NCBI GenBank assembly: GCA_037355855.1
Contig: CM074758.1
Coordinates: 3,197,001-3,261,000 of the forward strand
Reading direction: 5' to 3'
DNA: 64,000 bases
Source of the DNA: Pseudo-nitzschia pungens
Lineage: Eukaryota > Bacillariophyta > Bacillariophyceae > Bacillariales > Bacillariaceae
Part shown: positions 39,800 through 59,864 of the stretch, one piece after another
Layout of the letters: each line of letters begins with the position of its first letter
Numbering within the stretch: the first letter of the stretch is position 1
Notes under the pieces: generated by a model
What the model saw: the letters and a program-made list of their open reading frames with translations, nothing else
Database searches by the model: none
What the model was told of the DNA's origin: nothing
Program-made: the position numbers and the translations under genes

Positions 39800-41450
39800 C
39801 CTCTTCCACACCACAAACACTCACTGCCCTCCAAAAACTACTCCCCGCTACAACCTCCTCCTACCTCCCCCCTATCGCCCCACAAAAATCAAACACAATC
39901 CTCCCCCCTTATATCGTACCACCACTACCTATAACCACTAACACTGACACTAACACCCCCACTAACCCCCCAAACCCCGAATTTTTCCCAAAACTCACAA
40001 AAACTAACCCAATCCCCTTTCCCACAGACACTGACCCCAAAAGCTCCAAACCACGCTCCCCCGCCACCCTCCAAACCACACCCCCAGCAATGCTATCCAC
40101 AACCGAACTAGACCTCTTTGGTTCAACCCTTGACCCACTCGTCCAAAACGAAATCTATAACAAAAATGGTAAGCCCCACCCTAACATTTACTTCACCGGC
40201 GAAGTCCGCTTCCGCCACATCATTCCACACCTCTTCCCATACACAGAAACCCTCCTCGACCAATCCACCCTACATACCTTCCACATTGCCTGCCCCCTCT
40301 ACACAAAATACAAACGCGTCCACACAACCTACTCCCACCTAAACCCAAACCCCGTCCGAGGTTATGCACCCTACAACACCTTCCGCACCAACAAAGAGAT
40401 CAACCCCGAAACTATCCGCCTCACCACAACAGCACTCCTCCACCACGGATGTAACGTTGAAAAACTCGTCCGCTGGCTAGGTGGCCCCCACACCTGTGCA
40501 CACCGCAATGTCTCCCAAATCATGAAAACCCTCACACCCGGAGTTGACAAAGCAACACGCCAAGAACTAAAACGCATATTCAAATACGGTCCCCCCCGTC
40601 ACTGTCAAGCCCACAACACCGAAGAAAACCTCCTCAAATACGTTCGCTACGGCAACCATTCCTCCGTCACCAACAACGAAGAGAAATTCCTCAAAGTCCT
40701 TAAAAAAGACTTCTTCCGCGGTAACGTCACCATCGTCGACCCTGACCTCCTCCCCTTCATCCCCCACCTCCACCTCACCCCTCAAGGACTCATGTACCTC
40801 GACGACAAATGGAAAAGCGATCGACCCGTATTCGACTCTAGCTTCCTCGTCGACGACTATGCACAGTGCAACAACACATGGACCAACAAAAAAACTGAAC
40901 CAGAAGTCACCTTCGCATTCAGCCTCCTGCGCCTCCTCATCTTCATCTGGAACCTCCGCGCCACCTATCCCGACAAGCCCATCCTCCCCGGCGACAACGA
41001 CATCACGAATGCCTTCAGCACTGTCAAATATAACCCAGCAGTTGTCTCCATGCACGGTTATACTTCCTGTGGACACCTTGTATTCGCCACCGGCCAATCC
41101 TTTGGTGACTGCACCTCCCCATCAAATTTCGAACCCATCGCCGCCGCTCGCATGCAACAAGCCGAATGGCTTTGGACCCACAAACCCGAGGAATGCCTTC
41201 AACGCGCAGACAAATACATCAAATCCATGGTTATAAACACCGCCCCAGAAGACCCTCGCCCATTCGCACCAGCAAACCTTGACTCCTTCAACACAGGCGT
41301 CCTAAACCCCGACGGTTCCCGCCAACCACCTAAAGCCCCCATGATGGTTGACGACCACATATACGCCGACATCCCCGAATACTTCCCCCGAACTGTCGCT
41401 GCCAGTGTTGCCGCACTCGAAGACGTCTATGGCCCCCCCCACCCTAACCA
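39800..41450 (+). pseudogene. DIRS-like reverse transcriptase, 5' part (interrupted)
   Basis: The frame is open from the proposed acceptor at 39800 through the ATG at 40090 and into the nested transposon, whose terminal repeat supplies a TGA at 41455. RT motifs visible are YLDDKWKSDRPVFDSSF (fingers), GDNDITNAFSTVKYNP (motif A region), TGQSFGDCTSPSNFEP (motif B region) and MMVDDHIYADIPE (active-site DD). The thumb and RNase H continue at 55902. With the insert and one copy of the CA duplication removed, the codon at the junction (CA+G) joins the two parts in frame. The gene is therefore broken only by the insertion. Confidence 0.85.
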
Positions 41451-41469
41451 CGTCTGATAACTGTCACGC
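41451..41469. repeat. Left terminal inverted repeat
   Basis: CGTCTGATAACTGTCACGC, an exact reverse complement of 55881-55899. It is followed by three CGCGACCCAA direct repeats (41468-41495). The right end has related GCAACCCC repeats in inverted orientation. Confidence 0.9.
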
Positions 41470-41687
41470 GACCCAACGCGACCCAACGCGACCTATTTTC
41501 GAGAAAATCAAGCCTAAATTATGCCACGCGCAACCTTAACCTTGATTTTCGCGAGGTTTCTTCCAAGTTTTTCGCAACCCCCCCCACCTCGCGACAAAAA
41601 TACCATTTTGACCCAGGCTTGTCGCGTATGATTTGTACCAGTTGTACATACCCCGGGTATAGCATCCGCATTAAAAAATACGAAGTA

Positions 41688-44032
41688 CAGTGTAGCTGAG
41701 TGCTACAAGGTTAGGGTTGCTAATGCTACGAAATACGTACTGGATATGCTAACCTACCATGCTACCATGCTAAGATACTATGCTACCGCCGGGGTCGGGT
41801 CACTGGTGTACAATATGTACTATGAACGGACGCCTGACCCAAACAGTTACCCAACCCGCTAGCACACCTTTGAATCTAATTAAACGGAGCTACGCTACGC
41901 TACCCGTATAATACAGTACTGGAGCTACAGAGCTCTATTATCTACGAGTTATCGGAACGCTGTCACGATACGATACAGAGCTGAGCTGCGCTCATCCCCT
42001 GTAGCAGCGCTGTATCGCTGTATCGCTGTATCGCTGTATCCCTTCAGCGCTGTAGCGCTGTATCCCCTGTAGCGCTGTATCCCCTGTAGCGCTGTAGCGC
42101 TGTATCCCCTCTATCCCCTGCAGCGCTGTAGCAGCAACGCATCGATAATACAGGGGGGGGGGACAGCAAGCAGCAAGCAGCAGCAACGCGTCGATAATAC
42201 AAGAAGGGGGGGGGGACTGCAAGCAGCAAGCAGCAAGCAGCAGCAACGCGTCGATAATACAGGGGGGGGGGACTGCAAGCAGCAAGCAGCAAGCAGCAGC
42301 AACGCGTCGATAATACAGGGGGGGGGGACAGCAAGCAGCAAGCAGCAGCAACGCGTCGATAATACAGGGTGGGACAGCAAGCAGCAAGCAGCAGCAACGC
42401 GTCGATAATACAGGGGGGGGGGGACTGCAAGCAGCAAGCAGCAGCAACGCGTCGATAATACAGGGGGGGGGACTGCAAGCAGCAAGCAGCAGCAACGCGT
42501 CGATAATACAGGGGGGGGGGGACTGCAAGCAGCAAGCAGCTCGTAGCGATACGGTACTGCAGCGCTGTAGCTCTAACTCCAAAGATACTAGGGCCGTCGC
42601 GTACGATTTGTACCAATCGTACGTACCCCGAGTAAAGCACCTATTATGGTGTAGCTAAATGCTACAGGGTTAGGGTTGCTAATGCTACGTGATACTGAAA
42701 GATGCTAACCTACCATGATACCATGCTAAGATACTATGCTACCGCCGGGGTCGGGTCATTAGTGTATAATATGTACTATGACCGGATACCTGACCCAGAC
42801 GGTTACCCAACGCGCTAGCACACCTTTGAATCTAATTAGTAATAAGCGTAGCTACGCTACTACGCTACTACGCTACTCCGTACACTATGCTACTCCGTAC
42901 GCTACCCGTATAATACAGTACTGGAGCTACAGAGCTCTATTATCTACGAGTTATTAATGCTACTTCTAAATACTGGATATGTTAACCTACCATGCTACCA
43001 TGCTAAGATACTATGCTACCGCCGGGGTCGGGTCACTGGTGTACAATATGTACTACGACCGGACGCCTGACCCAAACAGTTATTAAGAGAGCAAGCCAGC
43101 AGCATCTAATTAATCGCTACTAACGCTGTAACGCTGTATCGCTGTATCGCTGTTTCCCCTGTAGCGCTGTAGCGCTGCAGCGCTGTATCCCTGTACGAGT
43201 ATCCCTGTAGCGCTGTATCCCTGTATCCCTGTAACGCTGTAGCGCTGTATCCCTGTATCCCTGTATCCCTGTAGCGCTGTATCGTAGCGCTGTATCCCCT
43301 TTAGCGCTGTATCCCCTATAGCGCTGTATCCCCTGTAGCGCTGTAGCAGCAACGCGTCGATAATACAAGGGGGGGGGACTGCAAGCAGCAAGCAGCAGCA
43401 ACGCGTCGATAATACAAGGGGGGGGGGGACTGCAAGCAGCAAGCAGCAAGCAGCAGCAACGCGTCGATAATACAGGGGGGGGGGGACTGCAAGCAGCAAG
43501 CAGCAAGCAGCAACGTGTCGATAGCGCTGTAGCGTAGCGCTGTACTAACTGTTTACGAGATACGTAGTATTTGGTAACAGTGTAGCTGAGTGCTACAAGG
43601 TTAGGGTTGTTAATGCTACGAAATACTGGAGACGCTAACCTACCATGATACCGTTGCTAAGATACTATGCTACCGCCGGGGTCGGGTCATCATAGTACAA
43701 TATGTACTATCACCGGATACCTGACCCAAACAGTTATTAAGCGGGGTAACGCTAATACGAGCTAGGGTTAGCGCAAGCGCGTTAGAGTTAATGCAAGCGC
43801 ACGCGATCTAGCTAGCACCATTAGGGTTAGATACTACGGTTGTGGCGTACGATTTGTACCAGTTGTACATACCCCTGATATAGCATCGGTACTAATACAG
43901 TGTAGCTGAGTGCTACAAGGTTAGGGTTGCTAATGCTACGAAATACTGGTTATTTTCACCTACCACGCTACCGTGCTAAGATACTATACTACCCCCGGGG
44001 GTAGGGTCAGTGGTGTACAATAGGGTTAAGGT
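41688..44032. repeat. Left internal repeats: five copies of an ~150-bp block
   Basis: Blocks starting near 41695, 42650, 42950, 43580 and 43895 share TGCTACAAGGTTAGGGTTGC, CTAAGATACTATGCTACCGC, GGGGTCGGGTCA and CTGACCCAAACAGTTA in the same order. The second and fifth copies are diverged. Each carries a GGGTCGGGTCA...CTGACCC inverted pair and a TTAGGGTT word. No coding function is seen. They may be internal binding sites or an amplified element within the transposon. Confidence 0.8.
42120..42545. repeat. G-run tandem array (8 copies)
   Basis: Eight units of about 45-60 bp have the form AGCAGCAACGCGTCGATAAT, then ACAGGGGGGGGG, then ACTGCAAGCAGCA. Three to four more units occur at 43340-43525. 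Upstream of each group is a run of GTAGCGCTGTATCCCCT-like units (42000-42120 and 43120-43340). The minus-strand frames rich in Cys/Leu/Pro across here are repeat artefacts. The G-runs could form quadruplexes. Confidence 0.85.
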
Positions 44033-44033
44033 A

Positions 44034-44575
44034 TGTACAGGAATATCAGTAGAAAAAAATTCGATCCTATGGTAAGGTTTACCGGTACGTCATTATGACA
44101 ATATTATTCGATTTGTTATTATTATTTACTACGTACTTCGTAGTATCTTTTACGTCATTATGACAATATGGGTGTCAATAAGGACCCGACTCGACGACAC
44201 CCACCGGTTAAGCCAATCAAAAAATTCGATTTTTCAGTACAAACTGTACAGGAATATTAGTAGAAAAAAATTCGATCCTGTGGTACCGGTATTACGTCAT
44301 AACGACAATATTATTTGATTTACCTAGTATTATTATTATTATTTGGTATCTTTTACGTCATTATGACAATACGGGTGTAAATAAGGACCCGACCCGATGA
44401 CACCCACCGGTTGAGCCAATCAAAAAATTGGATTTTTCCGTATAAACTGTACAGGAATATCAGTATAAAAAAATTCGATTCGTCATTACGACAATATTTG
44501 ATTTATTATTTGGTATCTTTTACGTCATTATGACCATATGGGTGTCAAAAGAGAAGAGCCGACGACACGCCCACC
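44034..44575. repeat. Three tandem copies of a ~205-bp unit
   Basis: Units begin at 44034, 44245 and 44449 (periods of 211 and 204 bp). Each starts with TGTACAGGAATATCAGTA and contains ACGTCATTATGACAATA, GGACCCGAC and GACACCCACCGGTT. The third is shortened. No ORF. Confidence 0.8.
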
Positions 44576-45097
44576 GTTTTTGCAAATCACTGTATTAAAT
44601 CACTGTATTTTGTATTTTGCTCCTCGCTCTCGCAAATCGCTGTATTTTAACTGTGTATCCTCGCATAATCACTTTTTTTGTGCTCCACTCACTATTTTCT
44701 TCAGGAATAACACAAATCACTGCTGTTTCGATTCACAATCCGACTTATTTTGAGTAGAGTTGCTTTATTGCACTCCGTCACGAGAACGAATCATAGAACC
44801 CGCCCTACGGTAGGCTCTTTTGCTCATTTTATTTTAGTCCGAATAACCTCCTTGAAGTGGTACAAGAAGGAATACCTATTGGTAAACACTTCAACACGAT
44901 CAAGTTCTTGGTTTTCGCGTCGAGGATTTTAAGAATAGAACGTCAGTGTTCTTTGTTTCCCGCCCTTCTCCCTACTATCTTTTCCTAGCCGGTAAGTGAT
45001 TAGTTGATTCCGTTTATTTCAATCGAAGCCTTCGTTCCTTTCAACGACCTCACGATCCTATTCATCCCTCTTTCGATCGATTCCAAGCCGGTGTACA
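44576..45097. other. Spacer within the transposon
   Basis: Unique AT-rich sequence with short plus-strand frames of 60-71 codons that lack domain character. Nothing is recognised. Confidence 0.35.
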
Positions 45098-45790
45098 TTC
45101 CCCCTACGATCGATTCTATCGGATCGATTCGACCCTACGATTCATCGGATCAAAGCCCTTGCTTTCCCCCCACAATTCATCGGATCGATTCAACCCTACG
45201 ATTCATCGGATCGATTCAACCCTGTCCCTAAACCCTACGATTCATCGGATCGATTCAACCCTGTGCCTTTCCCCTACGATTCATCGATCCAAGCTGCCTT
45301 CTCTTACGATTCATCGGATCGATTCAACGCTACGATTCATCTGATCGATTCAACCCTGTGCCTTTCCCCTACAATTCATCGGATCGATTCAACCCTGTCC
45401 CTAAACCCTACGATTCATCGGATCGATTCAACCCTGTGCCTTTCCCCTACGATTCATCAGATCGATTTAACCCTACGATTCATCGGATCGATTTAACCCT
45501 ACGATTCATCGGATTGATTCAACCCTTCGATTCATCGGATCCAAGCCGCCTTCTCCTACGATTCATCGGATCGATTCAAACCTAACCCTGTGCCTTTCCC
45601 CTACGATTCATCGGATCGATTTAACCCTTCGATTCATCGGATCCAAGCCGCCTTCTCCTACGATTCATCGGATCGATTCAAACCTAACCCTGTGCCTTTC
45701 CCCTACGATTCATCGGATCGATTCAACCCTTCGATTCATCGGATCCAAGCCGCCTTCTCCTACGATTCATCGGATTGATTCAAACCTAAC
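45098..45790. repeat. GATTCATCGGATCGATT array directly before the dioxygenase ATG
   Basis: About 20 copies of CGATTCATCGGATCGATTCA are spaced 22-45 bp apart and separated by AACCCTA, CCTGTGCCTTTCCCCTA or AAGCCGCCTTCTCCTA. The last copy ends only ten bases before the ATG at 45791. Each core holds the palindrome ATCGAT or GGATCGATTC. Several frames are open (repeating PYDSSDRFNP), but stops interrupt all of them before the gene. The position suggests promoter or 5' UTR repeats, perhaps sites for an element-encoded DNA-binding protein. Confidence 0.8.
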
Positions 45791-46888
45791 ATGAAAACAG
45801 TCACGAAAGCAACGACAGAAAAGCAACTGTCTAAAAAAGGGCGTTACCAAAAAGCCAAGAGGAAATACGGGAAGGCAGCTAGAAAGAGAATGACATCGGA
45901 CTTCATCAAGAACGCACCACCGAAGTCGAAAATCCACAATACTTTTAACCACTTGGTGAGGATAAAACCAAGGATAAAACCAACGAACCAGAACTTGACT
46001 GTTACACCTATGACAAACATCGTCAAAAGAGAATTGCGGATTGTAACCAACAACGATTTATTCAACAATGAGAAATTCTTTGCAACGAAGTGGAACAACA
46101 ACCATCCCCCCAACGCTCTGTCTATCGACGATCCGGAATCTTTCACGACATTGGATAGTACGAACGATGACCACGTTGTAGCTGTGGATAAAATTGTACC
46201 ATCTCTGAGAGTGTTTGCAAAAGTGTCGAGGGATAAAGCGAGACAACATCTGGCTGGAACGGAGGCTATCCAACATACAAGAATGTTTGCGACAAAGATT
46301 GTTAAAGCCAAACCAACAATTAAAAGAGGATGTAAGTGTGGTAGTATCGATAACGGATATGCTATTGTCGGTGTTCGACCCAACCGTGCACAGCGTGGCC
46401 TTGGTCCGTATGTGTTCAAAAAAACCGTGAAGCTATGGGAACAAGAGGATTTAAACGATGCTGCAGATCATATCGTGGATCAAATGGAGGAAAGTTTACG
46501 TCCGCTTGATCACTTTTTTGGTCATGAAATCTCTGTCATCCATCAGGTTTATGATCTAACAACACTGAAAACAGTTGGCAGTCGCTCCCTTGCCTTCTCA
46601 ATAGGTAAGGATTATCATTCCAAATGCCATATCGATGATGACTATTACTACACTCTTTTGACTGTTGTTGGTCCGTCGGAGGTAGGTAACGTGATTGTTA
46701 ATGATGATGAGGTTCTATATTATTTCATTTTCCCTTCCTATGGAATCAAAATCCCACTTCGTTCTGGGGATACACTGTTGTTTAACCCTAGCATCTTGCA
46801 TAGCTGTTCCAATCCTAAATACAAAGGCTGTTTCATTATGAGTGCCTTCGTACCTAGAAAAACTTTACTAAGAGCCGACATTCCATAA
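45791..46888 (+). CDS. 2-oxoglutarate/Fe(II)-dependent dioxygenase carried by the transposon
   Basis: The product is 365 aa with a clear ATG after the repeat array. The N-terminal 60 residues are strongly basic (KKGRYQKAKRKYGKAARKR), suggesting nuclear or nucleic-acid association. The C-terminal 120 residues form a double-stranded beta-helix dioxygenase. The iron ligands are His280 and Asp282 in CHIDDDYYYTLLTV and His337 in LLFNPSILHSCSNP, with Lys345 or Arg356 as the likely 2-oxoglutarate contact. The segment IFPSYGIKIPLRSGDTLLFNP is characteristic of the fold. Substrate is unknown. TET/JBP enzymes of this superfamily oxidise methyl groups on DNA pyrimidines and travel with KDZ-type transposons in fungi, so a DNA target is plausible but inferred; a protein hydroxylase is the alternative. 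Composition matches the surrounding transposon. Confidence 0.75.
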   Translation: MKTVTKATTEKQLSKKGRYQKAKRKYGKAARKRMTSDFIKNAPPKSKIHNTFNHLVRIKPRIKPTNQNLTVTPMTNIVKRELRIVTNNDLFNNEKFFATKWNNNHPPNALSIDDPESFTTLDSTNDDHVVAVDKIVPSLRVFAKVSRDKARQHLAGTEAIQHTRMFATKIVKAKPTIKRGCKCGSIDNGYAIVGVRPNRAQRGLGPYVFKKTVKLWEQEDLNDAADHIVDQMEESLRPLDHFFGHEISVIHQVYDLTTLKTVGSRSLAFSIGKDYHSKCHIDDDYYYTLLTVVGPSEVGNVIVNDDEVLYYFIFPSYGIKIPLRSGDTLLFNPSILHSCSNPKYKGCFIMSAFVPRKTLLRADIP

Positions 46889-47390
46889 TAATATTAAACG
46901 ATAATTTGAACTACTTGTCTTGTCCGTCTGGTACAGCCTGTGATAGTAAGTTCTATTGCCATTCTGATATGAAACGCCGAAACGAATCGATTGATCCGTA
47001 ACTACTTATCCGTCTAATTCGATTGCCATTACGATAGTTCCTTCGATTACCATTACCATTCCGATAGTTCGATCACCCTAAATGAATCGATCGAATGAAA
47101 CGCCCGTACGAATCGAGCGATTGATCAGAAACTAGTAGTACTTGTCCGTCTAGTTCGATTGCCATTCCGATAGTTCGAATCGATCGAATGAAACGTCGGT
47201 ACGAATCGAGCGATTGATCAGAAACTAGTAGTACTTGTCCGTCTAGTTCGATTGCCGTCGATGGATTGATCAGCCTGTGTGGTGATAGTTAGTTCGATTG
47301 CCATTCCGATTGTTCGTTCGACTGTGATAGTTGGTTTGATTGCGATTCTGATACTAGTTACCTGGATTCCGATAGATATGGTTGATTGTT
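46889..47390. repeat. Degenerate ~95-bp repeats downstream of the dioxygenase
   Basis: Two to three copies of a unit contain GAATCGAGCGATTGATCAGA, AACTAGTAGTACTTGTCCGT and CTAGTTCGATTGCCATTCCG (near 47040-47270), with looser relatives on each side. Their GAATCGATCGAATGAA words resemble an inverted form of the array upstream of the gene. No ORF is credible. Confidence 0.65.
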
Positions 47391-48880
47391 GAAGTGGGGG
47401 CGCAGGGAGAATGCTGAGCAAACCCCCCACTTGACTTTTAAGGCAAGCCCGAACCTATCAGTTTCTTCTCCAAACGGGCTGCCAGAGGCACTTTGTATAT
47501 GGAGATGAGGCACCGATGACACCTGGACTGATACGGTCAGTTATCCAAACCGTCGCTGTGTACGGAGGTTTTCCAATGAACAAAGGTAGTAACAACTGAA
47601 AGCAGTCAAAACCACCGCGGGGCCACCGCAAGTTCAATCAGAATCACTCCTTTAAAGACACCAGCAGCCTCGTTGAAAAGACCTCAATCACAGCAAAATT
47701 ATGCAAGGTTCACCACCCTGTCCCACCAGGGCCACTGCATTTTGCTATGTAAAAGATCCTTCCCTTGTGGTTACACCCAACGATGACTCCGACTTGAGGA
47801 ACCCAACGAAGACTCTGACTTGAGGAAACCAACGAAGACTCTGACATGAGGAAACCACCATCTCCAGTCTAGAGAGACATTTAGCAACCAGGCATACCTT
47901 GATCCAGAGTCATAGTGGAGGTATTAGGTTGTTGTCCCTCTCCATGGTATCTCAACAGTGCGCTCGTACAGCTAGTGGTATGATCTCAGGGAGCTACCCC
48001 ACCACTAGGCTAGCCCTGTACATTGAGTTAGCCCTGAAGAGAATCCCATGGTGACCTTCGATCCGACGTTGTTGTGTCAATCCGAAGTATGAATTCAGTT
48101 TTGCCAGGATGCAAAACTAGAATTGTGATCTTATACTGTTGTTGGAAAATGAAGAAATGAAAATGCTAATTCCACTATTGCAACTGCTGGTGGTGATACT
48201 TCCACTATTCTGAGTGTTACTACTTTCATTACTGATCTAGTAGCGTGTTGATTCTGAAACAACTCAGGTTTAATTTGGATACTTCTATATGTACACTTCA
48301 TTAGAATCACAGAGTACAATTTACAGGAAATATGAAAAAACCAAAATTCATTCACACTATCACAGAGTACAATTTACAGGAAATATGAAAAAACCAAAAT
48401 TGATTCACAAAAATTCAGGTTTTAAGTGGCTACTTCTACATGTACACTTCATTATGGGTACAAAGTACATTTTATAGTAAATCATGAAACCATTAAAATT
48501 TAATTCACAGAAATGTTTATTAGCCAACAGACACCACTTACAATCAGAAATTGATTCACGTTCCTATTGAACTATCAACAGACAAAACTTAATTTGATCG
48601 TGGTCATGTTAATGTACCAACAGACAACAAATTTAATCACATTAATGTGGTTTACCTTCCAACAGACAACACTTATCAACCCAAAATTTTATCATGTAAT
48701 TGTTCACCAGACAAACTTTTAATCCCACACCAGTAATATTCCATTAATTGATTTACATAAGTCATTTTTCTTTCATATCTACTAACATTCGTCTCTTAGT
48801 AGGAGCTAAGGTATGATACACTCTATCGTTCCTGTTAGAGGACCCTACTACCATGCAGTACCATCCCAAAGTACATCAAA
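47391..48880. other. Non-coding interior of the transposon
   Basis: The first 700 bp are of balanced composition with three 27-28-bp repeats (CAACGAAGACTCTGACTTGAGGA-type, 47767-47855) but no ORF, LTR or recognised RNA. From about 48240 there is a 61-bp direct duplication containing ACAGAGTACAATTTACAGG (48308 and 48363) and AT-rich sequence with recurring CAACAGACA words. Confidence 0.4.
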
Positions 48881-49530
48881 TACATGTGACATCCAAACCA
48901 TCCGGTGTTTTGGACTCGGACTTTTTCCGTAGTCCCAAGGATACATAGGGTGAGGACTATTGGCGGTGGAATGGTTAAAATATTCCATATATTGATTTGC
49001 ATAGGTCATTTTGTACATTTTCTAGTATAAAATGGCACTACTGGAGGAAATATGCATGAAATACATGTGACATCCAAACCATCCGGTGTTTTGGACTCGG
49101 ACTTTTTCCGTAGTCCCAAGGATACATAGGGTGAGGACTATTGGCGGTGGAATGGTTAAAATATTCCATATATTGATTTGCATAGGTCATTTTGTACATT
49201 TTCTAGTATAAAATGGCACTACTGGAGGAAATATGCATGAAATACATGTGACATCCAAACCATCCGGTGTTTTGGACTCGGACTTTTTCCGTAGTCCCAA
49301 GGATACATTGGGTGAGGACTATTGGTGGTGGAATGGTTAAAATATTCCATAAATTGATTTGCATAAGTCATTTTGTATATTTTCTAGTATAAAATGGCAC
49401 TACTGGAGGAAATATGCATGAAATACATGTGACATCCAAACCATCCGGTGTTTTGGACTCGGACTTTTTCCGTAGTCCCAAGGATACATAGGGTGAGGAC
49501 TATTTGCGGTGGAATGGTTAAAATATTCTA
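48881..49530. repeat. 181-bp tandem repeat, about 3.6 copies
   Basis: TACATGTGACATCCAAACC starts at 48881, 49062, 49243 and 49424, an exact 181-bp period. Units differ by only a few bases. They contain GTTTTGGACTCGGACTTTTT and CACTACTGGAGGAAATATGC. The array ends just past the 3' end of the transposase gene, which is on the opposite strand. Confidence 0.9.
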
Positions 49531-49593
49531 TACTTTTGATTAACATAATTCATTTTGTCAACCAAATATTGCCAAATACATGTGGCATGCAAA

Positions 49594-52500
49594 TTATGGG
49601 TACTGGTTTATATTTGGATTGGGATATGCAGGGTTTTCTTTGTACCGATCGTATAATGATATCGAGACCCTTTCACGATTCTTGCTCATGGAATGAATAA
49701 GTTCCATAAACCAATCGAGCCATGTAGTACGATTAGAAATGACTAACCAAGAATTGGTTTGAGTGTGACCTTCATCAACTTCTGCCACAACAGCCAAATC
49801 TGATACAATAGTATCTACGTGAAAAAGGAACAACTTATCACTTAGAAGCTTCCCGGTGGTGACAAACCGTGACATTGTTTCATTTGGTTTGCCCTGGAAT
49901 CTTCTTACAACTGCATAAATTCCATCTTCCTCCACAGGATATCCATTCACTAGCGAAGCAGAGATGTTCCGAAGTTGCAGGAAACACATGATCTGACAGG
50001 GTATTTGTTCATCGTCCAAATGGAAAAGAGCCCAGTCCATCCAAACAGCGTTGACTTGTGAACTGTTGGATCGATACGATGTATGACAACGAAAAATATA
50101 TTTCCTATTGTTCACTTTGTCATGACGGTTGTGCTCAGTGAACCCCTCCACGTGGGAAACATTGTCAAGAATTGGAATGACTTTGTCGCAAACAAAGGCA
50201 AGGACATCCATCGGGTATGACGGCTTATCCTTGTTGGATGTTCTAGACCAGGTCATGCTTGGTGTGTCGTTGGTACGTTGGATTGTAAAACGTGAACCAC
50301 CAACGGGATTACATGTCTGTGACTGTGTGTCATTCTTTACTCCCAATCCATATTCAGAAGTGGCTGTGCGTAGTAACATTTTCTCTTCTTGTCTCTTTGC
50401 TGTTTGTTCGATCAAAGTTGAAGCATTTTGTTGTGTGTTTTTTGAAGGAGCTTTGATTTCCGTTTTATGGTGAGATTCAGAGTACGCCGAGTCCCAGCCA
50501 CATGGTTTTCCCCATAACTTGATGTAATCAGTGAGGTGAAAGTACAAATGGTTTTTAATCAACTTTGATCCTGCTCCATTCCGAAGACAGGTTGTATTAA
50601 CGCAATCAATGAAATACGAAACGGTCTTTGGAAGTTTCTTCAAATCTCCAACGGTAATGTCACCCTTTTTTAAAAACTCTTCCATGGAAATGATGAGCTC
50701 GATAACCTCGATTTGCTTCTTGTTGAAGCGTCTGTCACCAAGGATGTTGTCCAACGGATTACTTGCAAGGGTTATTAGCACCGATATAAGAATGCCCGAG
50801 TATTCCTGCCCTCCCTTTTTCGTGGAGCTCAGAAGGGCACCAGTAAACTTAGTACGAGGAAAGTCCCGATCCGACTGTCTTGAAAGCTGTGCCCCGCATA
50901 GCCGTGCCAAATCTTCGACTATTGAGTAACTTTTTTTCCCAACACGAAGATCAGGTGCATACGGACATTCACCCGTTTGTAACTGACCCAAAAGCAGAGT
51001 CCCAAGTGCCTCAACACATCGTTTTGCTACACCTAGCTGATGCATGTGGAGGCATTCCCCGGGAGAGGCAAGATGAATATTGTGGACATTTACACCAAAA
51101 TTGAGCTTGTGGAATGCATTCTTTATAGGGTGATGAGAAATCGACTGGCAATACCTTTCTGTTTCAGTACGGTCTTCCATTTCAAAAATTTTTTGGAAAT
51201 CATATGGGACCCATAATCTTCTTTGTTGGAGTGTTTGTGCGTTTGGTTTGTTAATATCCTCCGACGGACAGTTGCAATGACGGCATAGTTTGTTCACTAG
51301 AAGTGAGCGGGATCCGAACTTTCCACAGAGTTTATCATGCAGTTCAGTGTCACCAATCACAAATGCAATAGCAAATTTCATTTTAATCGGTGTTAGACGT
51401 CCGTCGTGGGGGAAAAAATCCCACTCGATAGGGGTATTGCTTTCACATGTCGTTCTCAAAGATGATAAGGCAGTGTCTATTGCGTTGTGTAGGTTCTGAA
51501 TAGATTCGTGGGGTTTTTCCTTTCGGGTGTTACGGCCGATTGACTCTAACTGATGATCGGGGTGGAAATAGATTGTTGTCCATGCTTCCGGTTTTTTTCT
51601 TGTTTCAGTGTTAAAAATTCCAAGGGTCATGTTCAGAGGAGTGAGAGACAAACGTCCATGCACGTCGAGACTGATACCATCCATGTAGAAGAGTAATGGA
51701 ACTAGCATTTTGTCTTTTTTGCATAGTTGCTTCCAGGAATCGCTCCACCAGGATCCATGATGCAACTCTGTGATCATGGTATTATCAGAGATTGAAGGGA
51801 AGTTTTCAGGGGACAAAGGATCTCTGGAGTTTGGGAGGGAAATATTTTTTTCCTTCATTAGATCATTATTTGTCAACAAAGTATGGAGTGCATCCTGGAA
51901 AGGTCGCACATAAATTTGGGTTGGGAGATTACCTGGGAGCCAATTAGTGAGTTTTGGTTCAAAGTGCGTTGGGGGAACATTGAGATGGGTTTTCATTTCG
52001 TTGAAGATTGCATCTCTTGAACGGGCAGGCGTTGATGCAAAATCGAAGCCGTCCATTCCTTGCGCGTCTTTAGCCCACTCGAATATCGACTTGAAAGTGT
52101 TGAGGTGTAGCTTGTGCTTCATGAGTAGATTCATGAGCTTGATTTCTGCTATCAGTCTAGGGTTGGCATTGTATCCTCGACGAATCCTGTTGGAGCAGAA
52201 AGATATTTCTCTGTCATTGATGGATGGGAAGGGTTGTTTCCTCTTTGAGTTGCAATCGTCTGCTTCATCAGATGAATCGAGAATATCAAGAGAGTTGCTA
52301 TCAATACTTCCGTCACAACGCGGAAAGTTGGTGGGTGGTTGATACATGTTAGCATCCATTGCACCTCTGTCGATTGGGGGAATTAGAACGTTGTGGACCA
52401 CTTGCCCGTTGAGCCTAGCGTGAAGGTCAAGGTTGGATGGATTGTTGTTGGGGTGGGGGTTGGAGGGTAGAATCCGACCAAATTCTTGTAGAGTGTACTT

Positions 52501-52971
52501 TTTACTAGAAAGAGGAATCGATGAATCGGAATCTTCCTTCACTACCGACGTGGAGTAACATTTCTGTAGATTTCTTGATTCGTAAAAGAATAAGCAATAC
52601 TCGTTATTTGCCAGATGGTTTGATAGTCCCCTCGAAACATATTTTATGGAACCGCGGTGAGAAACAGATACTTTTTTGACTCCAGAAAACGTCTTCTTCT
52701 GCTTCTTCTTGTTTCTATCCGAAGCGGCGCACGCCACGCAGTAGAATAGCTTCGGGTACTTATTGCAATTGACAAAGTGAGAATTTGGGTACATGCTTTG
52801 GAGTTCGAGTATGATGTTGTTGAGGATGTTTGTGGTGTGGTGGACGTTTTCAATGGATGTTGTTGAGGATGTTTGCGTTGAGGTGGACGTTTTCAATGAT
52901 AGTGTGACAGAACGACATGGTGCTCGTGATGTTTTGAAACGTATTCCATGTGAGTATGGATGAAGAGACAT
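49594..52971 (-). CDS. Plavaka/CACTA/KDZ-like DDE transposase
   Basis: The product is 1125 aa with no internal stop. The frame starts at a TTG at 52974, and the first ATG is 52971. A Cys2-His-Cys-type cluster near residues 78-125 (CVACAAS...SNHLANNEYC) looks like an N-terminal DNA-binding zinc finger. The core has LLFYMDGISLDVHGRLSLTP and LNMTLGIFNTETRKKP near 425-460, then ASPGECLHMHQLGVAKR near 630. This is the D-containing strand and the PxExLHxxxxG signature of the large Plavaka/EnSpm-like transposases of fungi and stramenopiles. It would bind the subterminal repeats and cut at the terminal repeats. The family assignment rests on recalled motifs, so the exact superfamily is uncertain; a transposase function is well supported by its place inside a TIR-bounded unit. 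Confidence 0.72.
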   Translation of the reverse strand: MSLHPYSHGIRFKTSRAPCRSVTLSLKTSTSTQTSSTTSIENVHHTTNILNNIILELQSMYPNSHFVNCNKYPKLFYCVACAASDRNKKKQKKTFSGVKKVSVSHRGSIKYVSRGLSNHLANNEYCLFFYESRNLQKCYSTSVVKEDSDSSIPLSSKKYTLQEFGRILPSNPHPNNNPSNLDLHARLNGQVVHNVLIPPIDRGAMDANMYQPPTNFPRCDGSIDSNSLDILDSSDEADDCNSKRKQPFPSINDREISFCSNRIRRGYNANPRLIAEIKLMNLLMKHKLHLNTFKSIFEWAKDAQGMDGFDFASTPARSRDAIFNEMKTHLNVPPTHFEPKLTNWLPGNLPTQIYVRPFQDALHTLLTNNDLMKEKNISLPNSRDPLSPENFPSISDNTMITELHHGSWWSDSWKQLCKKDKMLVPLLFYMDGISLDVHGRLSLTPLNMTLGIFNTETRKKPEAWTTIYFHPDHQLESIGRNTRKEKPHESIQNLHNAIDTALSSLRTTCESNTPIEWDFFPHDGRLTPIKMKFAIAFVIGDTELHDKLCGKFGSRSLLVNKLCRHCNCPSEDINKPNAQTLQQRRLWVPYDFQKIFEMEDRTETERYCQSISHHPIKNAFHKLNFGVNVHNIHLASPGECLHMHQLGVAKRCVEALGTLLLGQLQTGECPYAPDLRVGKKSYSIVEDLARLCGAQLSRQSDRDFPRTKFTGALLSSTKKGGQEYSGILISVLITLASNPLDNILGDRRFNKKQIEVIELIISMEEFLKKGDITVGDLKKLPKTVSYFIDCVNTTCLRNGAGSKLIKNHLYFHLTDYIKLWGKPCGWDSAYSESHHKTEIKAPSKNTQQNASTLIEQTAKRQEEKMLLRTATSEYGLGVKNDTQSQTCNPVGGSRFTIQRTNDTPSMTWSRTSNKDKPSYPMDVLAFVCDKVIPILDNVSHVEGFTEHNRHDKVNNRKYIFRCHTSYRSNSSQVNAVWMDWALFHLDDEQIPCQIMCFLQLRNISASLVNGYPVEEDGIYAVVRRFQGKPNETMSRFVTTGKLLSDKLFLFHVDTIVSDLAVVAEVDEGHTQTNSWLVISNRTTWLDWFMELIHSMSKNRERVSISLYDRYKENPAYPNPNINQYP

Positions 52972-53471
52972 CAAAGGGAATGATTGGGAGTATCTTTGGA
53001 CTAAGTGCTAGTAAGGTAAGGTTAAGGTGATGAAAATGGCTGGGTGTACGTTCACGAATCAGTTGAGTCAAATGCTGTGGTTATGTGGGGGACTCTTCTT
53101 CATACAGTTAATAAGAACGAGGTTACTATCAGACAGTGGTGGGAAGAACTTGTAGTAGTGGGTGAGGGCAGGCTTGCAGTCGCCCTACTGGTGGTACTAG
53201 TAGTAATTCTGTAGTCAATACTAGTAGTAGTAGTAGCTCTACACAGTAGGTATTGAGTGTTCCTATAATGTACAGAAGGAGGTGAGGGACAAATTATGGC
53301 GCGGGAGGGTAGGCGTGATTCATGTAGCCTGCATGTGCACTAGCGGGGCAAGAACGCCCACTTCACATTGACTTTTTCACATTGACCTTGATGGTTGTGT
53401 CTCTTTTGGAGAGGTGCAGAAGACACATAATTTTTCACAGCGTTACTAGTAAGTAAGGTTACTGGGTAAAA
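52972..53471. promoter_or_regulatory. Divergent promoter region of transposase and accessory gene
   Basis: This 500-bp spacer separates the two divergent start codons. It contains a duplicated GGTGGACGTTTTCAATG word at its transposase edge and ACTAGTAGTAGTAGTAG microsatellite near 53218. No TATA box stands out. Shared regulation of the two genes is inferred from geometry. Confidence 0.45.
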
Positions 53472-55025
53472 ATGAATACAACCAATCCAAATTTATGTCC
53501 AGAAAAAAGGTCCACACGAAGAATGTCGTATGGGCCAAGTGTATACGAGGATGTAGTAGACACAACAGAATTGGATCAACCGACCACAGTAAATGACGAG
53601 ACAGTGAGAGCGTCTACTGAGATGAGCAAGAAACGAAAGTTGAGTGACGATGAAGAACTCGGGACGATTGTATCCAGAGCCGGTGGAGGGACAGGAAATT
53701 CAACAGGCAAGACGACAGACGAGAACACAAAAGAGACACCGCCAGGACGACTGGGTAGTATGAAGAAGCGAGCTAAAGCAGAGAGGGAGAAAAAGGATTT
53801 CGAGCAAGGCGTGGAGACGATAAAGCGCTTATTGCGGGGAAAGAAGGGTGGTGACTACAAGAAGGTGGTGACGGAGATTTTGTTGTCCAAGACTACACGT
53901 TCTGATCCTATCAACAACGACGAGGAGAACAAACGACAGGCGATACCTGGCGTTCCAAAGGGTATAGCATTGCCGGTCGAAGAAGTGAGAGGACCAGATA
54001 ATGAGGACAGAAAAATTAGTGAGTTAAGCAGTCAAATGGAAGGATTGGTGTCGGGTGATCTATTGTCACTAGCCGACACAAAGGGAAAAGTTGTTGAGAA
54101 GCAGGTGAGGGAATACATAAGAGAGAAGGTATATAAATTGACGAAATTCACGATGAGCAAAACACAAGAGAATGCCAAGATTATAGAGAAGGGAATCAAA
54201 GCGGGTAGGATAAGTATTCTCAAGGGGGTGACCAGCAAGACGTTTGCTAATTACCATGTGGGTACCGTAAAGCTAGCACTCAGTGCGCTGCGACATAACA
54301 CTCAAACGCTGGCACGAAAAAGATGGTTTGGTAAGTTGAGTGACAACAAAAGAGGGTAATTGCACATGTGTATCATAATATGAACAGGGAACTCACTGGT
54401 GTGCATTGTTTATGAAGACGACGCTTACGCAAATAGGGTACCAGAACATTTTCCAAGCAAAGTACAAATTGATGTAACGACAAGAGATATCATTTGCCCT
54501 GAATACCGCAGACCTAACATGTTTGATAACGATGAGTATCAGTACTTTTTGACAAGAATTCTGTCGGCGATCAATCCAAATGTTACGAATTTTGATACAA
54601 GAAAGAGTGAAGATTTGATTAGTGAGATATTTACAGTATCGGATGAGGCATTTGGTTTGATGATGATTCACAACGAATACAGGGTGTGGGTTGAGCAGAA
54701 GACAATTAAGGATGGTCCAAATCCAAAGAGGAGGGGTACAGAGAAGAAACGATACTGCGATCAAAGAAGTGGAAAAAAGGATGGATGGACTCAGGAAGGA
54801 ATGAGAGTTTTCAATCGGTTGTGTAGACGTGTAAGGGAATTAAGAGAAGGTGAGGAGACTGGGAGGGAGTTTGAGATGCTAGTAAAGGAAAAATTTGTGC
54901 GTGAAAGCAGTAATGAGGATGATGGTAATGATGATAGTGACAGCAGGGAGGAGGACGATTCAGAAGAAGAGGCATTTGTTGATCCAGGTATGGTTGAGTT
55001 CCTAGGTGAGATGGAGAGTGTATGA
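53472..55025 (+). CDS. Transposon accessory protein of unknown function, two exons
   Basis: Two adjacent open frames join through a 57-nt intron (54331-54387, GTAAGT...ACAG) into 498 aa. Exon 1 is 53472-54330, exon 2 is 54388-55025, and the split codon reads GGG. The join turns a weak second start into continuous sequence (RWFGNSLVCIVYEDD). The protein has a Ser/Thr-rich charged N-terminus, a basic Lys/Arg region (KKRAKAEREKKDFEQ) that could be nuclear-targeting or coiled coil, a middle rich in Lys and Leu, and a C-terminal tail of mostly Asp/Glu/Ser. I recognise no domain. It is divergent from the transposase and ends about 60 bp before the right repeat array, so a role as a second transposition or regulatory protein, as in two-gene CACTA elements, is plausible. 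Confidence 0.65.
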
Positions 55026-55084
55026 TAAAAGTAGCAGAAAAAAGACATAGTGGAATTGTAATTGTGGAGGCGAGTTATGATATT

Positions 55085-55760
55085 CAAAACGGGGTATAAC
55101 TCGTTTGGGATAGTGTGACATGGATTTTCGCAACCATAGGAATTGTTTCAGAATAGTAAGAGGTTGCGTTTCACAACCACAGAGTCTGATTTTCGCAACC
55201 ACATAGGAAGTAATTCAGAATAGTAAGAGGTTGCGTTTCACAACCACAGAGTCTGATTTTCGCAACCACATAGGAAGTATTTCAGAATAGTAAGAGGTTG
55301 CGTTTCACAACCACGGAGTCTGATTTTCACAACCACAGAATCTGCGTTTCACAACCACGAAGTCTGATTTTCACAACCACGGAGTCTGCGTTTCACAACC
55401 ACGGAGTCTGCGTTTCACAACCACGGAGTCTGATTTTCGCAACCACATAGGAAGTAATTCAGAATAGTAAGAGGTTGCGTTTCACAACCACAGAGTCTGA
55501 TTTTCGCAACCACATAGGAAGTATTTCAGAATAGTAAGAGGTTGCGTTTCGCAACCACGGAGTCTGATTTTCACAACCACAGAGTCTGCGTTTCACAACC
55601 ACGGAGTCTGATTTTCACAACCACAGAGTCTGCGTTTCACAACCACGTAGTCTGCGTATCACAACCACGGAGTCTGCGTTTCACAACCACGTAGTCTGCG
55701 TTTCACAACCACGGAGTCTGCGTTTCACAACCACGGAGTCTGCGTTTCACAACCCCCTGG
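55085..55760. repeat. Right subterminal array of CACAACCAC motifs
   Basis: More than 20 copies of TTTCACAACCACGGAGTCTG, or the variant TTTTCGCAACCACATAGGAA, stand in direct orientation at 22-66-bp spacing, ending about 120 bp from the right terminal repeat. A longer 66-bp unit containing AGTAATTCAGAATAGTAAGA recurs four times. Small palindromes GTTGCGTTTCACAAC are embedded. Subterminal repeats of this kind are transposase binding sites in CACTA and related elements. The left end has only one or two weak matches (TTTTTCGCAACCCCC near 41570). Confidence 0.85.
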
Positions 55761-55880
55761 CGCGACCCAAACCGCGCAATAACCTTGAACGTATAGGTTG
55801 TGCAACGCAAGGTGATGCAAACATATGTCGTGTTAAATTTGCACACAAAGGAGGTTGCCACGGGGGGTTGCCACGGGGTT

Positions 55881-55899
55881 GCGTGACAGTTATCAGACG
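55881..55899. repeat. Right terminal inverted repeat
   Basis: GCGTGACAGTTATCAGACG, the exact reverse complement of 41451-41469. The DIRS-like RT frame resumes at 55902. Confidence 0.9.
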
Positions 55900-55901
55900 C
55901 A

Positions 55902-57159
55902 GGTTCAATACCTCTCCGACGAAAAACTTAACAACACCTACACCGAACAACGACTCCTCTTAGGCCACTACATAGACACCCGCAATATGGTTGTATCCCT
56001 CTCCCCACGCAGACGCGAAAAAATCATCAAGTACCTCTCAGTCGAAGGCTGGATCCTCCCCAAAAAACGAGCCACCATCACCGAGATCAGTACCGTCCTT
56101 GGACTCATCGGTTCCATATCCGAATACTTCCCCTGGGCCCGTGCGCAACTCCTCCTCCTCACCGACCTACTCGCTCGCCAGATTAACATCCGATACCAAG
56201 TCCTACGACGCGACCCCAGCTTCCGTAAACGACTTGCAGACACAACCCGCAACATGCCCGAAAACCTCCACTTCCGCCTGCGCTACCTCCCCCAAAAATG
56301 GAAAGCCCAGGCCGTATGGCGCACCAATGCCCGCGTCACCATCAACGAGGCCATTCGCAAAGACATCCAAAATGTATATAAATATCTTGTCTCTGACGAA
56401 CCCTGGTGGTCCCCTATCGGCCACGTCGTCCCCCGCGTACCCGCATTCACCTCTTGGGGCGACGCCTCCAACCGCGCCCTCGGCGCCCAGATCCCCGCAC
56501 TGCGCGCCTGGGTTATGCTCCCCTACACCGAGGACCTCTGCAAACGTGTTGACGCCGGTATAACACACATAAACTGCCTGGAATTCATTGCCCTCCTCCT
56601 TGCCTTCATTATGGCTCTCGAGCGATACACCACAAACCCCTCCCTCTACCCCCCTACCCCACAAATGCTCTCATACGGCGACAACACCACCGCTAACGCA
56701 TGGTGGCAAAAAATCAGCACCCACTCCGTCACCGGTCAAAACCTCCTCTGCCTCTACGCTGAATACCAGCGCCTCTCCCCCCTCAACTCTGTGGCTGAAC
56801 ATGTGCGCGGTGTGGACAACGTCAAAGCCGACGCCATTTCTCGTCCCCATGAACTCTTTACACCCCACCTCACCTCACCTTGGTCTGTCCCTTATCCCAC
56901 TCTTGTCCAACAGGTAGTCACTCATTACTCAGAGAAAGAATCCTGGGACATTTTCGTCCCCAGTCCAGAGCTGCATTCCACCCTTTTGCGAACTCTCTCA
57001 TCCGCCTCAGTAACGGGTCGTCCAAGCCTGCCAAAGAGCAACGGACACTTTATTCCCGCCGCCTCCATTTTATCTACTTCTGCCACCACATCCACGTCTA
57101 CGACGACCTTTTTCCTCGGGTACACCAGCACGTCAGCAGTGAGCAACTCTGCTACATAA
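55902..57159 (+). pseudogene. DIRS-like reverse transcriptase thumb and RNase H, 3' part
   Basis: This continues the RT broken at 41450. The upstream frame from 55855 reads through transposon sequence and is not part of the gene. Early residues (LLLGHYIDTRNMVVSLSPRRR) match the post-palm region of DIRS-type RT. RNase H follows: FTSWGDASNRALGAQ with its first Asp near 56462, HINCLEFIALLLAF with Glu, LSYGDNTTANAWW with Asp, and VRGVDNVKADAISR near the end. There is no damage other than separation from its 5' half. The last 280 bp overlap the tyrosine recombinase frame, as is common in DIRS elements. Confidence 0.85.
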
Positions 57160-59078: not shown

Positions 59079-59864
59079 ATCCCTTCCCCCACTGAACCCG
59101 CTATTCTTGGGTTCCCACCAAATCCTATCCTTTAACCTCTATCCTTTAACCTCTATCCCACAACTTTAAAAAGTTTTTTATTTTTTAATTTTTTTCCGCC
59201 TGGCCTACACCTGCTGATCTGTTGGTCAACACCTCCAGATAAGATGGCCCGAAGTGTTTTGATCCCGGTGCACACACCATGCTCAACGCAGCCGACGCAG
59301 CCCAACCAGATGGCGGCGGAGGGCGATGCACCTTTGCAACTGCTTCTAGCATGGGACTTAAGCCCTGCTACGTGCAGTCGCATATGCGATCACACTTTCT
59401 CTCTAGCAGCTTTGTTAGCCCGCCAAACCTATGTATCATAGTTAGTATACCTATACATAGGACCGCAGGTCCCATAGCTCCTAGGAGGGTTGGTCAACTA
59501 GCAACACGACACCTTCAGACCGGTAGTTGCTGGCCAGACGAGACGGCGCCCGGGAATTGGGCATAGCAGATTCACGCAGTAAGATTACCGTATCTCACTT
59601 GGTGAGCAATACTTCGTACATAATAAGGCCTTACCATCATCCGTAAGGTAATCTTACTCCTGACAATTTCAAAATCATTGGAAAAACTGAAATTTAAAAA
59701 AAAATATATATTGCGACGCATGGTGATTGTCGGGTTCAAGCCTCCAGAAACCTCGTTCGCAACGCCCGAGGTTGCATCCCTTCACAACTACTTCGTACTT
59801 CGTACTTGCTTCTACCACAGGTCGGAAGTGCTCGGCTCGCACCGCAAATCAAGTACACCTAGAC
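59079..59864. other. Right flank of the DIRS-like element and upstream region of the SET gene
   Basis: C/A-rich element composition fades after a T-rich tract at 59165-59200 (TTTTTTATTTTTTAATTTTT). The 59200-59560 stretch is GC-richer, with small hairpins (GGACCGCAGGTCC near 59460) and no ORF of substance. It may still be element terminal sequence. The final 300 bp resemble host spacers and should hold the promoter of the gene at 59865. Confidence 0.35.

What the first reader, a model, noticed from the sequence alone, without database searches (positions are those of the whole stretch)
41451..55899. DNA transposon carrying its own 2OG/Fe(II) dioxygenase next to a Plavaka/KDZ-like transposase
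The sequence shows one TIR-bounded 14.4-kb unit holding a large transposase, a basic-tailed dioxygenase with HxD...H ligands, and a spliced accessory gene. In fungi, TET/JBP-type dioxygenases have expanded together with KDZ-class transposons, and the pairing is thought to modify methylated DNA around the element. A comparable pairing in a diatom may be a separate or unreported instance of a transposon that brings an enzyme able to edit host DNA marks. That the dioxygenase acts on DNA is inference.
Basis: partly seen in the sequence, partly recalled or inferred. Interest (0 to 1): 0.88.

Follow-up and report, generated by a model that had tools for sequence, protein, structure and literature searches.

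The report
Diatom transposon carrying a TET-like enzyme
A cut-and-paste transposon in what appears to be a diatom carries, beside its transposase, a gene for an enzyme shaped like the TET enzymes that oxidise methyl marks on DNA, so it may bring its own tool against silencing, a pairing previously described in fungi.

The parts
41449..41450 (.). target-site duplication, left copy (CA)
   Evidence: matches 55900-55901; same rule in 23 of 23 elements read
41451..41474 (+). left terminal inverted repeat CGTCTGATAACTGTCACGCGACCC
41501..45750 (.). left arm of diverged repeats without a recognised gene, shared with non-autonomous copies and partly with the second family
45791..46888 (+). TET-fold Fe(II) dioxygenase, 365 aa, basic N terminus, H280-x-D282...H337
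47406..48540 (.). about 1.1 kb block shared (94%) with the second element family; the dioxygenase cassette of the C1:4825983 copy changes origin at its left edge (~47417)
49594..52974 (-). Plavaka-like (CMC) transposase, 1126 aa; D432, D542, C564xxC567, H809x3H813, E833
53472..54330 (+). accessory gene, exon 1
   Evidence: homologues in two related families
54331..54387 (+). predicted 57-nt intron (GTAAGT...AACAG)
   Evidence: donor conserved in second family; no RNA evidence
54388..55025 (+). accessory gene, exon 2 (acidic C terminus; predicted product about 498 aa)
55201..55760 (.). right-arm tandem repeats (gcgtttcacaaccacggagtctg type)
   Evidence: read by eye
55876..55899 (-). right terminal inverted repeat
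55900..55901 (.). target-site duplication, right copy (CA)
40090..41450 (+). host retroelement ORF, part upstream of the insertion (continues at 55902-57159)
55902..57159 (+). host retroelement ORF, part downstream of the insertion

Best explanation
This is an autonomous Plavaka-like (CMC, DDE-type) DNA transposon. The transposase cuts the element out at its CGTCT...AGACG ends and inserts it with a 2-bp target duplication. The element also encodes a TET/JBP-fold Fe(II) oxidase that most likely binds DNA through its basic N-terminal arm, flips out and oxidises 5-methylcytosine at CpGs on or near element copies, and so relieves methylation silencing and lets the transposase be expressed or act. 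Shown here: element structure, TSD, empty sites, association with two transposase families, purifying selection, TET fold of the model, kept Fe triad, excess of CpG transitions between copies, host methyltransferase domains. Inferred: autonomy, binding and oxidation of 5mC, and anti-silencing as the benefit.
Against: No activity, expression or methylation data. The Arg that holds 2OG in TET2/NgTET1/CcTet is Cys (25), Ser (5) or Gly (1) at the corresponding spacing, Arg/Lys in 0 of 31 rows; the base-contacting His/Arg two residues after the aromatic is Pro/Ser/Asn/Lys; the Asp/Asn at D+3 that contacts N4 of 5mC is absent, with Asp/Asn at D+2 instead. The Foldseek TM-scores to TET entries are moderate (0.33-0.61 by query length). 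Pfam Tet_JBP finds nothing in the genome, though its control was silent too. 5 of 18 family-C transposases have no detected dioxygenase, and family B is numerous without it, so it is not needed for transposition as such. CpG is not depleted in the element (observed/expected 0.93, window 0.81). The CpG-transition excess could be genome-wide: no control on genes or on family B was run, and three of the four comparisons share the window copy.
Confidence: 0.6

Rival explanations
1. The enzyme acts on methylated DNA bases but with a different co-substrate or product, as Chlamydomonas CMD1 does with vitamin C (5-glyceryl-methylcytosine), because the classical 2OG-binding Arg is gone. The mark would then be masked rather than removed.
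Against: Another conserved basic residue could hold 2OG: R324 (R/K/H in 31 of 31 rows with a residue), K278 or R196. Residue equivalence rests on spacing, not on an inspected superposition.
Confidence: 0.2
2. The protein is a TET-fold DNA-binding helper without catalysis, used in transposition or regulation.
For: Loss of the 2OG-binding Arg; strongly basic N terminus; location beside the transposase.
Against: H280, D282 and H337 are intact in 17 of 17 own copies and in 15 of 15, 14 of 15 and 14 of 14 external rows with a residue; related family B has no copy nearby.
Confidence: 0.08
3. It is a protein hydroxylase (prolyl or asparaginyl) captured by the transposon, acting on chromatin or host proteins.
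For: P4H, AspH and PHD2 also match by Foldseek (5.8e-5, 1.2e-4, 2.2e-4); weak sub-threshold PhyH/cupin matches at the second-His region.
Against: All TET-family entries listed rank above them in both comparisons; TET2 and CMD1 align over 251-257 of 290 residues, PHD2 over 178.
Confidence: 0.07
4. The gene is a neutral passenger caught between the ends.
For: 24 of 28 same-ended elements lack it.
Against: Uninterrupted in 17 copies, dN/dS 0.33-0.36 across 63% identity, near transposases of two families in 16 of 17 cases, homologous proteins in Pseudo-nitzschia multiseries.
Confidence: 0.05

Closest known systems
Fungal TET+ DNA transposons (Kojima 2025, PMC12730594), especially TET+ Plavaka (PlavakaB) of Agaricus bisporus and Gymnopus confluens
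   Same: DNA transposon with a Plavaka-type transposase, 2-bp TSD (2 or 3 in PlavakaB), a TET/JBP-fold gene inside the ends, and transfer of the dioxygenase gene between transposon lineages.
   Different: Probable diatom rather than fungus; termini CGTCT...AGACG instead of TGT..ACA (PlavakaA) or CATCA..TGATG (PlavakaB); HxD rather than the HxE hallmark of the PE type; no 2OG-binding Arg at the usual place; the inter-family transfer here is 99.9% identical over the dioxygenase CDS, against about 80% for the one case over 70% that the paper reports.
CcTet (Coprinopsis cinerea, AG type), human TET2, Naegleria NgTET1
   Same: Fold over the core, HxD...H triad, aromatic residue at the base-stacking position.
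   Different: Only 8-15% sequence identity in the structural alignments; Arg and His/Arg of the last strand replaced; acid at D+2 rather than D+3 (CcTet uses D+9).
Chlamydomonas CMD1 (vitamin C-dependent TET homologue)
   Different: I saw nothing about transposons in the CMD1 passages I read.

Membership tests
Plavaka / CMC transposons | PF18759 Plavaka transposase domain | tested here: inconclusive
   Window protein itself: no hit at E up to 5. 9 of 14 members of its alignment hit PF18759 (best 3e-9); the closest homologue, 44% identical over 92%, bears PF18759.
Plavaka / CMC transposons | D, D, C(2)C, H(3-4)H, E signature of CMC transposases (as given in PMC12730594) | tested here: met
   D432, D542, C564xxC567, H809x3H813, E833; D542, C564, H809, H813, E833 invariant and D432, C567 at least 90% in 14 sequences. 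Roles assigned by order and spacing.
Plavaka / CMC transposons | 2-bp target-site duplication | tested here: met
   23 of 23 family-A-ended elements read, plus two second-family elements (TT, TA).
PlavakaA or PlavakaB (fungal subgroups) | termini TGT..ACA or CATCA..TGATG | tested here: not met
   Termini are CGTCTRATAACTG..CAGTTATYAGACG; so not filed under either subgroup.
KDZ transposons (Kyakuja-Dileera-Zisupton) | KDZ transposase domain; 7- or 8-bp TSD | tested here: not met
   No KDZ Pfam hit in 14 members; TSD is 2 bp.
TET/JBP dioxygenases | TET-type double-stranded beta-helix fold | tested here: met
TET/JBP dioxygenases | HxD...H Fe(II) triad | tested here: met
   17 of 17 own copies; H280 15 of 15, D282 14 of 15, H337 14 of 14 external rows with a residue.
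TET/JBP dioxygenases | Arg binding 2OG on the last core strand (R1896 TET2, R289 NgTET1, R385 CcTet) | tested here: not met
   Cys/Ser/Gly in 31 of 31 rows at the matching spacing; equivalence by spacing to published numbering, not by inspected superposition. Lowers the claim of a canonical 2OG-dependent TET, not of the fold.
TET/JBP dioxygenases | aromatic residue stacking on the flipped base (Y1902, F295, F391, F416) | tested here: met
   F/Y/W353 in 31 of 31 rows with a residue, by the same spacing.
TET/JBP dioxygenases | Pfam PF12851 Tet_JBP sequence match | tested here: inconclusive
   No match; the control genomes rang nowhere either.
Fungal PE-type TET (type reported for transposons including Plavaka) | HxE instead of HxD | tested here: not met
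   HxD in 31 of 32 rows, one HxN; hallmark from PMC12730594 section 3.4.
TET/JBP dioxygenases | oxidation of 5mC (or a related base) in DNA | not testable with these tools
   needs biochemistry

The most novel reading that the evidence does not exclude
A non-fungal lineage of transposons has a TET-fold enzyme that has lost the 2OG-binding Arg and writes a different DNA mark (for example with ascorbate, as CMD1 does), placed on its own CpGs to hide from the host's methylation readers; the enzyme cassette is traded between transposon families within one genome.
Probability: 0.25. Interest if true: 0.9.

Novelty: new variant of a known kind. Interest (0 to 1): 0.78.

Why it matters
In the papers I could search (CC-licensed PMC; capped listings; no paper at all in 135) TET-carrying transposons are described only for fungi. 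A second, distant lineage would mean that capture of a base-oxidising enzyme by cut-and-paste transposons is a recurrent strategy. One compact genome holds a natural comparison: two families with the enzyme, one related family without it, same-ended elements lacking both genes, and a fresh cassette swap. Whether the enzyme relieves silencing can therefore be tested directly by long-read methylation calling. The altered active site also makes a new co-substrate or a new DNA base plausible.

Full report
1. THE ELEMENT. A genome-wide scan for the 22-nt pattern TCTRATAACTGTCACGCGACCC (up to 3 mismatches) gave 84 places and none for the reversed control. They pair into 28 elements. Flanks of 20 pairs were fetched and 3 more were read from other stretches, so 23 of 28. 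In 23 of 23 the two bases just outside the terminal CG are identical on both sides (TA 11, TT 4, TG 3, CA 2, CT, AA, AG 1 each); shuffling gives a mean of 6.7 and a maximum of 15; a 3-base match is found in none. So the element runs CGTCTGATAACTG...CAGTTATCAGACG with a 2-bp TSD, CA in the window. Of 11 places matching the 169-nt joined flanks, two are the window's own halves and nine match from end to end, four at 100%: these are empty copies of the retroelement into which the transposon jumped. Removing the element and one CA joins the two host ORFs into one open frame of 872 codons. The insertion is therefore probably young.

2. THE TRANSPOSASE. The 1126-aa ORF on the minus strand (49594-52974) has 79 relatives at E <= 1 (26-55% identity), 26 of them with PF18759 (Plavaka transposase) precomputed. 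Of 14 aligned members, 9 match PF18759 on scanning (best 3e-9); the window protein itself does not. The alignment shows D432, D542, C564xxC567, H809x3H813 and E833, the arrangement that PMC12730594 (introduction) gives for the CMC group; the roles are assigned here by order and spacing. The same paper (section 3.2) gives PlavakaA 2-bp TSDs with TGT..ACA ends and PlavakaB 2- or 3-bp TSDs with CATCA..TGATG ends. The ends here differ from both. It is not KDZ.

3. CO-OCCURRENCE. Dioxygenase search of the own genome: 29 matched stretches, about 25 places after I merged pieces; 17 carry an uninterrupted ORF over 300 aa, 3 of an A type and 14 of a B type (the C6 copy appears to have an N-terminal duplication). 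Transposase searches scored 41 of 243 candidates and 44 of 242, so counts are lower bounds. Family A (98-100% to the window transposase): 4 copies (three matched over the full length, the C1 one at 1-1034 and 1066-1126), all 4 with a dioxygenase inside the same pair of ends. Family C (92-100% to L045:2269-5415): 18 copies, some partial, 13 with a dioxygenase 2.5-3.2 kb away (12 uninterrupted, 1 broken), 5 without one. Family B (54-56% to the window): 33 scored copies, the nearest dioxygenase 31.6 kb away. In all, 16 of 17 uninterrupted dioxygenases lie within 10 kb of a family A or C transposase; C3:385386 does not. The other 24 of the 28 A-ended elements (3.4-17.7 kb) contain no listed dioxygenase and no listed family A or C transposase; one of the 24 was read (L046, 7.8 kb) and has matching ends and no match to the four proteins. 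Thus the dioxygenase goes with the transposase, not with every pair of ends.

4. TWO LAYOUTS AND A SWAP. Family A: dioxygenase (+), transposase (-), accessory (+). Family C, read at C8:5117-19166: dioxygenase (+), transposase (+), accessory (+), ends CGTCTAATAACTGATTTT, TSD TT; the ends of a second copy at C4 show TSD TA. Family B, one copy read at C9:2780701-2794500: transposase about 450 nt after an end-like CGTCCGAAAACTG motif (its other end was not found), homologous accessory gene (25% and 40%), no dioxygenase match. In a tree of 17 transposases C groups with B (93/91, below the tree's star level), not with A. The copy at C1:4825983-4841119 is 98.6% identical to the window element over the transposase and accessory half, yet its dioxygenase is only 60-63% identical in protein to the window's and 99.9% identical in DNA to that of a family C element. 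Identity jumps at element position ~5967, at the edge of a 1.1 kb block shared by both families. The cassette was exchanged very recently. PMC12730594 (sections 3.4 and 4.1) reports such transfer between fungal transposons, with one case over 70%, at about 80%.

6. THE ACTIVE SITE. Fe ligands H280, D282 and H337 are kept in 17 of 17 own copies. In solved TETs the last strand carries Arg, then an aromatic at +6 and His/Arg at +8 (R289/F295/H297 NgTET1, R1896/Y1902/H1904 TET2, R410/F416/R418 CMD1 from PMC7854593, passages; R385/F391/R393 CcTet from PMC11040006, passages). Here H337+10 is C347 (25 Cys, 5 Ser, 1 Gly of 31 rows), +16 is F353 (aromatic in 31 of 31), +18 is P/S/N/K. R385A abolishes CcTet activity. 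So either another basic residue holds 2OG (R324, K278 and R196 are conserved candidates), or the co-substrate differs, as in CMD1, or the enzyme is inactive. Equivalence is by spacing only; I could not open the model.

7. THE HOST SIDE. The genome has 6 matches to the C5 DNA methyltransferase domain (PF00145) over the cut-off. Between copies, transitions are concentrated at CpG: 24 of 111 CpG C/G positions against 12 of 398 others in 14 B-type ORFs (odds ratio 8.9, p 2e-9); 12 of 411 against 18 of 2057 (3.4); 14 of 130 against 33 of 886 (3.1); 12 of 106 against 9 of 574 (8.0). Other changes at the same positions (8/111 v 14/398, 5/411 v 13/2057, 4/130 v 28/886, 0/106 v 7/574) show no such consistent excess. 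This fits deamination of 5mC in these elements, but I ran no control on host genes or family B, and the element is not CpG-depleted (0.93 against 0.81 for the window). PMC9998398 (abstract and passages) reports that loss of DNMT5a in Phaeodactylum goes with lower methylation and overexpression of young TEs.

8. MECHANISM, most likely. Element copies are methylated at CpG by the host; the element's TET-fold enzyme binds DNA, oxidises 5mC and lifts or masks the mark, so the transposase and accessory genes stay expressed. Steps shown: element, association, selection, fold, Fe triad, CpG-transition excess. Steps inferred: DNA binding, substrate, co-substrate, benefit.

9. NOVELTY. Known kind: TET+ transposons of fungi, including Plavaka. 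New: a probable diatom lineage with other ends, no 2OG Arg at the usual place, two families plus a related dioxygenase-free family in one genome, and a fresh inter-family swap. Searches for diatom or stramenopile cases (CC-licensed PMC only, listings capped, most listed papers not opened) showed none; 'diatom' and 'Pseudo-nitzschia' do not occur in PMC12730594. The PNAS 2014 paper by Iyer and colleagues on fungal TET/JBP and KDZ is recalled and was not read.

Noticed in passing
window 37286-39712 and 40090-41450 + 55902-57159: Retroelement that hosts the insertion; its second ORF looks like reverse transcriptase/RNase H by eye (recalled, no Pfam hit). Nine other places match the junction, four identically, so it is itself young and multi-copy.
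   Followed up: partly
G000 C9:2780701-2794500 (L091, L092): Family B: at least 33 scored copies of a related Plavaka-like transposase; the one copy read has the accessory gene but no dioxygenase. A natural control family.
   Followed up: partly
G000 C8:2592254-2600059 (L046) and 23 other paired ends: Same-ended elements of 3.4-17.7 kb, many near 8 kb, with no listed transposase or dioxygenase; the one read has no match to the four proteins. Unusually long for non-autonomous elements.
   Followed up: partly
G000 C10:2861773-2885753: A family A element of 24 kb with several kb of extra DNA between dioxygenase and transposase, probably nested insertions; its left terminal CG reads CA.
   Followed up: no
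G000 C4:6551555 and several TSD flanks (L055, L083, L087): Some insertion sites sit at TA in palindromic or TAC/GTA-repeat sequence (for example ATGG-TA-CCAT).
   Followed up: no
window 59727-62048: SET-domain ORF (PF00856, E 1e-12), probably a host gene.
   Followed up: no
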